Source of the DNA: Caryophanales bacterium
Lineage (GTDB): Bacteria > Bacillota_I > Bacilli_A > RFN20 > CAG-826
Length of the DNA stretch: 48,300 bases
Direction: 5' to 3'
Assembly (NCBI GenBank): GCA_016290145.1
Contig: JAEESX010000004.1
Span: forward strand, 1 to 48,300
Part shown: piece by piece, positions 33,079 through 35,144 of the stretch
Numbering within the stretch: position 1 is the first letter of the stretch
Layout: each line of letters opens with the position of its first letter
Position numbers and translations under genes: made by a program
The notes under the pieces: model-generated
What the model was told of the DNA's origin: nothing
The model's database searches: none
Seen by the model: only the letters and a program-made list of their open reading frames with translations

Positions 33079-33426
33079 TTAAAGAATTTCTTTAATACGA
33101 GCGGATTTACCGGAAAGCTTACGAATGTAAGTAATCTTGTTTCTTCTGACTTTACCGCGACGGACAACTGTAATGCCGGCGATAACAGGAGAATTGATTG
33201 GGAATGTTCTTTCCACACCGATGCCACTGGACATCTTACGAACGGTAAAGGTTTCGCTCACACCACCACCACGACGGCAAATAACGACGCCTTGGAAGTT
33301 TTGAATACGGGATTTGTTACCTTCGATAATTCTAACGGAAACTTTAATCTCGTCACCAGAAGAGAATTCTGGTAAATCTTTTCTGATTTGGCTGGCGGTG
33401 ACTTCATTTACTAAATTGTTATTCAT
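33079..33426 (-). CDS. rplS: 50S ribosomal protein L19
   Basis: [60 protein letters not shown]. Confidence 0.98.
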
Positions 33427-33565: not shown

Positions 33566-33574
33566 TGCTATAAT
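33566..33574 (+). promoter_or_regulatory. Extended -10 promoter (TGCTATAAT) 7 nt before ATG at 33582
   Basis: TGC-TATAAT, with ATG starting at 33582 within the expected transcription start position. Confidence 0.6.
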
Positions 33575-33581
33575 GCTATCT

Positions 33582-34718
33582 ATGATAGAACTAAAAGGCG
33601 GATTAATTCTCGGAAAAAGCTCACCTAAGAAAGAAGTTTCATTTATTTATGAAAAGGGTGAGATTAACTATATCGACTATTCATCTTTTTATATTTATAA
33701 ATTTTTAAAACTCAAAGACATCGCTTTAGATAAGGGCGAGTTCTTTGTGGATAACATCAAAATTTATCCAACGGAAGATGAAGAAAAGACATTATTTTTC
33801 CTTGCGGTTAATTCCATCATTAAAGTGGACCTCTGCTTTGTCGTGGACAAGAAAGATAAAAAAGAAAAAGTTCAATTTGTCCAAGAACAATTACTCGAAT
33901 TAAAGAACTTCCCAGTTAATACAGAAAATGATAAAAACCTTAAAATTGCAGCGATTTTTGACAAAATTGCCGCTATTTCGCCATCTTATTTACTTGTTGA
34001 CTTAAATGACGAGGCTAACGGAACAAGCATCGAATTGATGAACCAACTCAACAAATATAAGGATGTTTTGACTATTGTTGTTTTGAGTCAAAAACCTAAA
34101 GTAGTTAAAGAAGAAAAACCAATCGTAGAAGATGAAGAAATTGAAGTTATCGATTTAGAAATTGGTGAAGAACGTCCAATGCTTTATGAATCAGATTATA
34201 GAGATAGCAAAGATGAAAACTTAGTGGTCTATGGTCTAAAGAAAAATGGATTCTTCAAAGCGCTTGGTGAAACACTTAAAACAAATATTATGGTTTTCCT
34301 TGCATTCATCATTCCTGCAATTGGTGTTATCGCATTCAGTTTGTTATCACCACTATATGCAAAAACAAGTAACGCTATCTTATTAATTCCATTTATTATC
34401 ACTATCATTGTTTGCTTTGGATTATATATGCTCATGACATATAAATGCGCTAACTTCGGTAGTTATAAATCTAAAGAAGAGAATAGAAAAAGAATTATAT
34501 TCTTTATCATTAACTGTGTAACCACTGCTATTGGTTATGGATTAGGTTTCTTAATCTATTTCCTATTTAAGAAGTTCGATGTTGATATTAAAGGAATGCC
34601 CGGAAACAATGTAGGCATTATTTTATCTATCGTTATGTCGGTAGTTTTAGTGACTGCAAACCTATATATTTATCCAGTCATTCATCCTTTAATTAATAGA
34701 ATTAAAAGAAATAGATAA
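33582..34718 (+). CDS. Membrane protein with an N-terminal degenerate ABC-ATPase-like domain and about four C-terminal TM helices
   Basis: EVSFIYEKGEI...FLKLKDIALDKGEFFVDNIKI and SPSYLLVDLNDEANGTSIELMNQLNKYKDVLTIVVLSQKP resemble ABC NBD segments; Walker A absent. The ORF-track start at 33474 lies upstream of the predicted promoter. Confidence 0.75.
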   Translation: MIELKGGLILGKSSPKKEVSFIYEKGEINYIDYSSFYIYKFLKLKDIALDKGEFFVDNIKIYPTEDEEKTLFFLAVNSIIKVDLCFVVDKKDKKEKVQFVQEQLLELKNFPVNTENDKNLKIAAIFDKIAAISPSYLLVDLNDEANGTSIELMNQLNKYKDVLTIVVLSQKPKVVKEEKPIVEDEEIEVIDLEIGEERPMLYESDYRDSKDENLVVYGLKKNGFFKALGETLKTNIMVFLAFIIPAIGVIAFSLLSPLYAKTSNAILLIPFIITIIVCFGLYMLMTYKCANFGSYKSKEENRKRIIFFIINCVTTAIGYGLGFLIYFLFKKFDVDIKGMPGNNVGIILSIVMSVVLVTANLYIYPVIHPLINRIKRNR

Positions 34719-34793: not shown

Positions 34794-35144
34794 ATGTCTG
34801 TCAAAATTAGATTAACAAAAATTGGTCGTCATAAGGACCCATTCTTCAGAATCGTTGCTATCGATTCCCGTACAGCCAGAGATGGCAAACCAGTTGAACA
34901 AATTGGCTACCTCGATCCAGCCAAAGGTATTGAAAGCGCAGTCATCAATGAAGAATTAGCACTCAAATGGTTAAACTTAGGTGCTATCCCATCTGACACA
35001 GTTAAAGCTGTCTTCAGCAAAAAAGGCTTAATGGCCAAATATGCTGAAAGCAAAAAACCAGCTGCTAAAGCAGAAAAGAAAGAAAAAGCTGCTAAAAAAC
35101 CAGCTGCTAAAAAAACAACCGCAAAAGCAAAGAAAGCAGAATAA
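34794..35144 (+). CDS. rpsP: 30S ribosomal protein S16 with a K/A-rich tail
   Basis: VKIRLTKIGRHKDPFFRIVAIDSRTARDGKPVEQIGYLDP. Confidence 0.98.
   Translation: MSVKIRLTKIGRHKDPFFRIVAIDSRTARDGKPVEQIGYLDPAKGIESAVINEELALKWLNLGAIPSDTVKAVFSKKGLMAKYAESKKPAAKAEKKEKAAKKPAAKKTTAKAKKAE

What the first reader, a model, noticed from the sequence alone, without database searches (positions are those of the whole stretch)
33582..34718. Pseudo-ABC ATPase domain fused to a four-helix membrane domain
Seen: the N-terminus (MIELKGG...EVSFIYEKGEINYIDYSSFYIYKFLKLKDIALDKGEFFVDNIKI) follows the usual order of an ABC NBD opening (vSF-x-EKGEI ... LL-x-L-x-pdsGEi-vDg-x-I), but the Walker A GxxGxGKS/T is replaced by YIDYSSFYIYK. 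Further on, SPSYLLVDLNDEANGTSIELMNQLNKYKDVLTIVVLSQKP matches the Walker B/D-loop/H-loop stretch with the catalytic Glu position Leu and the H-loop His position Gln. No LSGGQ is visible. About four TM helices follow. Knowledge: ABC NBDs need Walker A, Walker B, signature and H-loop. Inference: a catalytically dead NBD repurposed as a scaffold or regulatory domain of a membrane protein; I do not recognise this architecture.
Basis: partly seen in the sequence, partly recalled or inferred. Interest (0 to 1): 0.7.

Follow-up and report, generated by a model that had tools for sequence, protein, structure and literature searches.

The report
Dead ABC-ATPase domain on membrane anchor
In a poorly known family of rumen and gut Bacilli, a conserved protein carries what looks like an ABC-transporter motor domain that has lost its ATP-binding loop, fused to four membrane helices, and its genes often lie among genes that build the cell's surface sugars, so it is probably a motor part re-used as a scaffold.

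Summary
In detail: window 33582-34718 (+) encodes 378 aa, a cytosolic alpha/beta domain (1-172), an acidic linker and four TM helices. The ABC reading is supported indirectly. HMMER finds no ABC hit in Pfam or PDB for the window's protein. But AlphaFold2 of residues 1-173 (pLDDT 78.5, pTM 0.77) matches ABC NBDs in ranks 1-31 of a PDB fold search (best E 0.0037). A diverged subfamily of the same family aligns with NBDs at 86-88% probability, keeping 'aL..hPxYvlLDlS' where NBDs have 'aL..nPklLllDEPTs'. The P-loop is shortened by about four residues; signature, catalytic Glu and H-loop are gone. Loss and TM fusion are conserved in about 80 of 224 genomes of this taxonomic family; nothing full-length was found outside it. 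Strong purifying selection (N-domain dN/dS about 0.05) excludes a decaying pseudogene. The order NBD-4TM is that of MacB without its extracellular domain; TM ancestry is unresolved. Outside the window's genus the gene often sits among surface-polysaccharide genes (25 of 40 loci; 3 of 33 control windows), and carriers lack Wzz (0/80 versus 16/80). Best guess: an ATP-independent membrane scaffold, probably of surface-polysaccharide assembly; function untested. New variant of a known kind.

The parts
33582..34718 (+). gene for the 378-aa pseudo-NBD / 4-TM protein
   Evidence: open frame, ATG start; 77% identical homolog with dN/dS 0.12 overall (0.170/1.43), 0.05 in the N-domain
33582..34097 (+). 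residues 1-172: degenerate ABC-type nucleotide-binding domain, predicted cytosolic
   Evidence: AF2 pLDDT 78.5, pTM 0.77; PDB fold search ranks 1-31 are ABC NBDs; profile comparisons
33663..33701 (+). residues 28-40 (INYIDYSSFYIYK): place of the Walker A loop, shortened by about 4 residues, no G or K pattern
   Evidence: gap in alignment to own-genome NBDs; strand 28-32 joins helix 33-43 directly in the model; no Walker A in 48 homologs
33924..33977 (+). residues 115-132: helix in the place of the signature (LSGGQ) helix; holds K121, the most conserved residue of the family (96% of 48)
   Evidence: DSSP of the model; conservation
33981..34025 (+). residues 134-148 (PSYLLVDLNDEANGT): Walker B / D-loop equivalent; D140 kept, catalytic Glu replaced by Leu
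   Evidence: collinear alignment to NBDs and to MacB-type proteins; g18 relatives read like 'LxxxPxYvlLDlS'
34098..34271 (+). residues 173-230: acidic, fast-evolving linker
   Evidence: dN/dS about 0.39 against 0.05 for the N-domain
34272..34715 (+). residues 231-378: four transmembrane helices, predicted N-in/C-in with a K/R-rich loop after TM2
   Evidence: hydropathy and loop charges; helices of the model
33566..33574 (+). extended -10 promoter-like element TGCTATAAT placed so that transcription would start at or just before the ATG (leaderless or nearly so)
   Evidence: TATAAT kept upstream of the 77% homolog and the full TGCTATAAT upstream of the 38% homolog; sequence inspection only, no transcript data
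33079..33426 (-). rplS, divergent neighbour; with rpsP it brackets the gene in five of the six genomes of this genus
34794..35144 (+). rpsP, downstream neighbour

Best explanation
The protein is a membrane-anchored pseudo-ATPase. Its N-terminal domain descends from an ABC-transporter nucleotide-binding domain (likelihood about 0.8) whose P-loop was shortened and whose signature, catalytic Glu and H-loop His were lost, so it can hardly bind or hydrolyse ATP in the usual way. The order N-terminal NBD then four TM helices is that of a MacB-type half-transporter without its extracellular domain; descent from such a protein is a lead (about 0.4). What is kept under selection is the core of the domain and residues on the signature-helix / Walker-B / D-loop side (K121, Y136, D140, N146), the side through which NBDs touch each other and their membrane domains. 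The most likely mechanism, inferred: the domain is a fixed protein-protein interface that dimerises and/or docks a cytosolic partner to the membrane, as a scaffold or regulator of surface-polysaccharide assembly (about 0.45), possibly filling the place of a Wzz-type co-polymerase, which carriers lack. Shown here: family, fold resemblance, motif loss, selection, gene neighbourhood. Not shown: loss of ATP binding, oligomerisation, any partner, any polysaccharide phenotype.
For: AF2 N-domain model pLDDT 78.5; PDB fold search ranks 1-31 are all ABC NBDs, probability up to 0.99, and the top hit of the low-confidence full-length model is the LmrA NBD. N-domain profile versus NBD profile global 22-25 in most comparisons against <=9.7 (15 controls) and <=12.4 (30 controls); g18 subfamily versus NBD local 43-44, 86-88%, reversed 11-12; g18 to window subgroup 94.6%. 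Architecture: full-length family profile versus ECD-less MacB 96.6%, score 53.7, against 18.4 reversed and 23.4 in swapped order; unrelated soluble domains on MacB TMs give <=20.5 global. MacB topology: PMC5985334. Selection: dN/dS 0.05 N-domain, 0.14 TM. Context: 68 polysaccharide-gene hits among 301 neighbouring ORFs in 25/40 loci versus 3 of 294 in 3/33 control windows; Pfam confirms UDP-sugar dehydrogenase, CapF-like, WecB, GT2, sugar transferase; CapD/CapF or Wzy/WecB directly beside the gene in further loci. Wzz above cut-off in 0/80 carriers and 16/80 non-carriers. Precedent for a dead P-loop scaffold in Wzx/Wzy pathways: EcpK (PMC12004946).
Against: No ABC hit by HMMER in Pfam or PDB. 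Fold-search E-values stay above 0.001, TM-scores 0.41-0.54, and the alignment behind the model held only four sequences. The window subgroup alone scored 7.7 globally against one diverse NBD set and 8.2 against MacB-type NBDs, and g18 only 1.3 globally / 18.9 locally against MacB-type NBDs. The TM domain matches GtrA about as well as MacB TMs. In five of six genomes of the window's genus the gene sits between rplS and rpsP, not in a polysaccharide cluster. Polysaccharide seeds for the neighbourhood test were taken from the loci themselves, the 'Wzy' and 'Wzx' labels rest on likeness (Pfam gave nothing for the Wzy-like protein), and both the neighbourhood and Wzz counts ignore relatedness of genomes.
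Confidence: 0.5

Rival explanations
1. The N-terminal domain is an alpha/beta fold that is not homologous to ABC NBDs; AlphaFold2 produced an NBD-like layout from a shallow alignment and the motif-like stretches are chance.
For: No HMMER hit to ABC families in Pfam or PDB; fold-search E-values above 0.001; borderline profile scores for the window subgroup alone.
Against: 31 consecutive NBDs at the top of the PDB fold search; the g18 subfamily links to NBDs at 86-88% with the Walker B / D-loop in register; control families score far lower.
Confidence: 0.15
2. It is the silent half of a heteromeric ABC system: the degenerate NBD pairs with the NBD of a separate, active ABC protein and the complex still transports something.
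For: ABC exporters with one degenerate site are common knowledge; intact ABC genes abound in the genome, including a fused NBD-FtsX protein in most relatives.
Against: Even degenerate NBDs of heterodimeric exporters usually keep a Walker A (general knowledge); here it is lacking in all homologs read. Among recurrent neighbours an ABC gene appears in only 7 of 40 loci, directly adjacent in one. The four TM helices lack a Pfam transport-domain match.
Confidence: 0.13
3. It is a Csn2-like pseudo-ATPase domain (CRISPR adaptation protein, also without Walker A) attached to a membrane anchor.
For: Profile against Csn2 global 17-21, controls <=4.5, with a strand-helix layout in place of the P-loop alike.
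Against: g18 relatives do not match Csn2 (4.6 global); combined profile 6% against Csn2 and 70% against NBDs; Csn2 is at best rank 15 in the fold search and absent from the top 50 with the better model; no CRISPR genes noticed in the neighbourhood.
Confidence: 0.05
4. It is a general membrane housekeeping protein; the neighbourhood of polysaccharide genes reflects variable islands where fast-evolving genes collect, and the Wzz exclusion is phylogenetic.
For: In the window's genus the gene is fixed between rplS and rpsP; several other genera show unrelated neighbours; Wzz-positive genomes cluster in certain genera.
Against: Polysaccharide genes recur as neighbours in about ten genera with different gene orders and sit directly beside the gene in several loci (Wzy-like/gene/WecB, hydrolase/gene/CapD/CapF); inside genus g25 the Wzz carriers G218, G220 and G231 lack a strong family match while the strong carriers of that genus lack Wzz.
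Confidence: 0.25

Closest known systems
ABC transporter nucleotide-binding domain (Pfam PF00005)
   Same: Order of strands and helices, Walker-B-like 'PSYLLVD', 'GEFFVDNIKI' stretch; fold search and g18 profile comparison
   Different: P-loop shortened, no signature, no catalytic Glu, no H-loop His; below every family cut-off
MacB / FtsX type VII ABC half-transporter
   Same: N-terminal NBD followed by four TM helices in one chain (topology from PMC5985334); collinear full-length profile match after removing the MacB extracellular domain
   Different: No extracellular domain, NBD dead; TM match not clearly better than to GtrA
EcpK, bacterial tyrosine pseudokinase of Myxococcus xanthus (PMC12004946)
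   Same: Proposed role: P-loop-type domain without catalytic residues acting as scaffold in Wzx/Wzy polysaccharide assembly
   Different: BY-kinase fold, not an ABC fold; works with a PCP, whereas carriers here lack a detectable Wzz
Csn2 (Pfam PF09711)
   Same: Weak profile similarity; no Walker A in the sequences read here; strand runs into helix where the P-loop would be
   Different: Not matched by the NBD-nearest subfamily; soluble DNA-end-binding tetramer (PMC6620040)
GtrA (Pfam PF04138)
   Same: Four TM helices with a charged loop after TM2; profile score 29.8 against <=17.9 for other TM families
   Different: Window genus alone does not match (18.5 local); circularly permuted GtrA scores as high locally

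Membership tests
ABC NBD (PF00005) | Walker A GxxGxGK[ST] | tested here: not met
   absent in the window protein and in 48 homologs; loop about 4 residues short
ABC NBD (PF00005) | signature LSGGQ | tested here: not met
   absent in the homologs read
ABC NBD (PF00005) | Walker B Asp followed by catalytic Glu | tested here: not met
   Asp kept in most, Glu replaced in the window protein and not conserved
ABC NBD (PF00005) | H-loop His | tested here: not met
   Gln in the window protein; no conserved His
ABC NBD (PF00005) | score above Pfam cut-off | tested here: not met
   no ABC hit at E<=10
ABC NBD (PF00005) | NBD fold | tested here: inconclusive
   fold search ranks 1-31 are NBDs, but E >= 0.0037 and TM 0.41-0.54
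ABC NBD (PF00005) | profile homology through intermediates | tested here: met
   g18 subfamily to NBD 86-88%, to window subgroup 94.6%
ABC NBD (PF00005) | ATP binding and hydrolysis | not testable with these tools
   needs a biochemical assay
MacB-type half-transporter | N-terminal NBD-like domain plus four TM helices | tested here: met
MacB-type half-transporter | large extracellular domain between TM1 and TM2 | tested here: not met
   loop of about 10 residues
MacB-type half-transporter | TM helices homologous to FtsX | tested here: inconclusive
   scores 23-27 against reversed 8-17, GtrA similar
Csn2 (PF09711) | profile homology | tested here: inconclusive
   above controls for the window subgroup, absent for g18
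Wzz polysaccharide co-polymerase (PF02706) | Wzz domain, two TM helices | tested here: not met
   no PF02706 match in the window protein nor in its genome; four TM helices
GtrA (PF04138) | profile match of the 4-TM domain | tested here: inconclusive

The most novel reading that the evidence does not exclude
A MacB-like ABC half-transporter has lost its P-loop and its extracellular domain and has become the polysaccharide co-polymerase (chain-length or assembly scaffold) of a Bacilli lineage, replacing Wzz and the BY-kinase switch: an ATP-independent ABC relic in Wzx/Wzy pathways.
Probability: 0.15. Interest if true: 0.8.

Novelty: new variant of a known kind. Interest (0 to 1): 0.55.

Why it matters
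Pseudo-kinases and pseudo-GTPases are well known, but lineages in which an entire ABC NBD has lost even its P-loop while staying under strong selection, fused to a membrane domain, seem hardly described; none was found in the held literature by the searches made. The family offers a graded series (g18 members nearer to ABC, the window subgroup further) for studying how a motor domain is turned into a scaffold. If the polysaccharide link is real, it would fill the gap left by the missing Wzz in many of these gut Bacilli and make their surface-glycan assembly testable.

Tried and rejected
Pfam, NCBIfam, PHROGs and PADLOC scans of the protein: nothing credible. Rfam over the locus: nothing. Viral contigs: no relative. 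Literature searches for degenerate ABC domains gave no such case. Csn2 as origin: weighed and put low. GtrA as origin of the TM domain: suggestive, not separable from MacB. HMMER hits of the family profile on intact NBD-FtsX proteins (E 1.7e-7 per genome; 26.5 bits) looked decisive, but similar bit scores come from unrelated proteins with charged linkers and TM helices, so I do not rely on them. Closest NBD subclass: MacB-type NBDs alone match worse than mixed NBDs, so descent from MacB specifically stays open.

Full report
Observation. The frame at 33582-34718 (+) is real and reads as quoted. It lies between divergent rplS and rpsP. Against the homolog at 77% identity, dN is 0.10 and dS 1.9 in the N-domain, dN 0.18 and dS 1.28 in the TM part, dN 0.39 and dS 0.99 in the linker (dS is near saturation, so the ratios are rough).

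Family. Full-length relatives were found in 8 of 58 relatives, 37 of 224 genomes of the same taxonomic family with the first profile, and about 80 with the enlarged profile A6 when only strong matches (E below 1e-15) are counted; 121 have some match at E<=0.001, many of them TM-only. Outside this taxonomic family only short matches appear, mostly in the TM region. Three named loci are rumen or omasum Bacilli MAGs. No homolog that was read has a Walker A or LSGGQ.

Fold. A model of the full protein with a four-sequence alignment is poor (pLDDT 53.8), yet its top PDB match is the LmrA NBD. The N-domain alone gives pLDDT 78.5, pTM 0.77, with the order b-b-b-a-b-b-b-a-a-b-a-b. In the PDB fold search ranks 1-31 are ABC NBDs, probability up to 0.99, E from 0.0037, TM-score (query) 0.41-0.54. 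The strand before the P-loop runs directly into the next helix; the alignment to NBDs opens a four-residue gap there.

Profile evidence. By HMMER nothing links the window protein to ABC families. By hhalign, the N-domain aligns collinearly over its whole length with NBDs from its own genome and a relative: global score 22-25, while 15 control families reach at most 9.7. With a more diverse NBD set the enlarged profiles give 21-31 and the 21-sequence profile only 7.7; 30 controls reach at most 12.4. The link becomes firm through a subfamily in genus g18 (L225-L228, L239): it matches the window subgroup at 94.6% and NBDs at 86-88% locally, reversed profile 11-12. Its members read 'LARPLFTILDLS', 'LKSHPCYLLLDLSES', 'LESNPDYVLVDLSKA', 'LAHPDYVVLDFSKLD', 'LCARPKYVLLHLGGAD', the NBD pattern of proline, hydrophobic strand and (in four of five) Walker B Asp, with the catalytic Glu gone. 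The window subgroup keeps 'SPSYLLVDLND'.

Architecture. N-terminal NBD and four TM helices is MacB's order; MacB has a large extracellular domain between TM1 and TM2 (PMC5985334). Against a set of 30 intact NBD-FtsX proteins from the same taxonomic family with that domain cut out of the alignment, the full-length family profile scores 53.7 (96.6%), against 18.4 reversed and 23.4 with the order swapped. Chimeric profiles show that both halves contribute: unrelated soluble domains on the MacB TM part give at most 20.5 global, other ABC proteins on it 64.4, MacB NBD plus GtrA 47.9, MacB NBD plus other TM stretches up to 38.0. So NBD-plus-4TM is supported, while MacB and GtrA cannot be told apart as the source of the TM helices. 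The HMMER hits on intact NBD-FtsX proteins are not used as proof because charged-linker-plus-TM proteins score similarly.

Context. In five of six genomes of the window's genus the gene sits between rplS and rpsP. In G002 of the same genus, and in other genera, it lies elsewhere. Of 40 loci from the family, 25 contain surface-polysaccharide genes within about 5 kb, against 3 of 33 control windows from the same genomes (Fisher p 2e-6, without correction for relatedness; the seed proteins came from the loci themselves). Recurrent neighbours across genera are UDP-sugar dehydrogenase (six genera), SDR epimerases (six), WecB (four), a VanZ/Big_2 protein (four), GT2 and sugar transferases (three each). 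In further loci the gene sits directly between a Wzy-like protein and WecB or between an alpha/beta hydrolase and CapD-CapF. Wzz (PF02706) is above cut-off in none of 80 carriers and in 16 of 80 non-carriers (Fisher p 1.3e-5, again uncorrected); in genus g25 the Wzz carriers G218, G220 and G231 lack a strong family match.

Mechanism. With no P-loop, signature, Glu or His, ATP-driven work is very unlikely (from established knowledge of ABC NBDs). The best-conserved residue is K121 (96% of 48 sequences), in the helix that replaces the signature helix; Y136, D140 and N146 lie on the Walker-B/D-loop strand and turn. That is the side by which NBDs pair and meet their membrane domains, so I infer a retained protein-protein interface: a membrane-tethered scaffold or regulator. 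The neighbourhood points to surface-polysaccharide assembly, and EcpK (PMC12004946) is a precedent, suggested by its authors, for a catalytically dead protein acting as a scaffold in such a pathway. Shown: family, fold resemblance, motif loss, constraint, neighbourhood. Inferred: no ATP binding, oligomerisation, partner, pathway.

Verdict. The family has no Pfam or NCBIfam model; I rate it a new variant of a known kind (pseudo-ATPase derived from an ABC half-transporter).

Noticed in passing
window 33566-33581: Extended -10 element TGCTATAAT directly before the ATG; TATAAT kept in the 77% homolog and TGCTATAAT in the 38% homolog: the mRNA may be leaderless or nearly so.
   Followed up: partly
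L093:5190-6596 (-), also L118:3415-4740 and L237:3892-5235: UDP-sugar dehydrogenases with an N-terminal helix-turn-helix domain (Pfam HTH_3 plus UDPG_MGDP_dh, for L093; the other two by sequence likeness), directly beside the family gene.
   Followed up: partly
L232:982-2745 (+), L233:1099-2829 (+): Family members of about 580 aa with a long repetitive, K/W/F-rich, possibly amphipathic insert (for example 'LGKWLGRFFVWLGKKLKKFF') between the pseudo-NBD and the TM helices.
   Followed up: no
L114, L132, L231: Genus g25 members carry an extra N-terminal domain of about 100-200 aa before the pseudo-NBD.
   Followed up: no
L083:4960-5655 (+): A family member in G068 that ends after the N-domain and linker, without TM helices: a possibly soluble version.
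   Followed up: no
L075:3167-4843, L082:2788-4431, L128:1063-2754: Recurrent neighbour with Big_2 repeats and a weak VanZ match below the Pfam cut-off (L128); L074 has a short relative, and L236:3901-4407 a short protein of similar look.
   Followed up: partly
L038:5666-5995 (+): Extra 109-aa K/G-rich, possibly amphipathic protein gene between rplS and the family gene in one relative of the window's genus.
   Followed up: no
G090 contig C4, 6281-7117 (-): Decayed second copy of the family gene with five stops.
   Followed up: no
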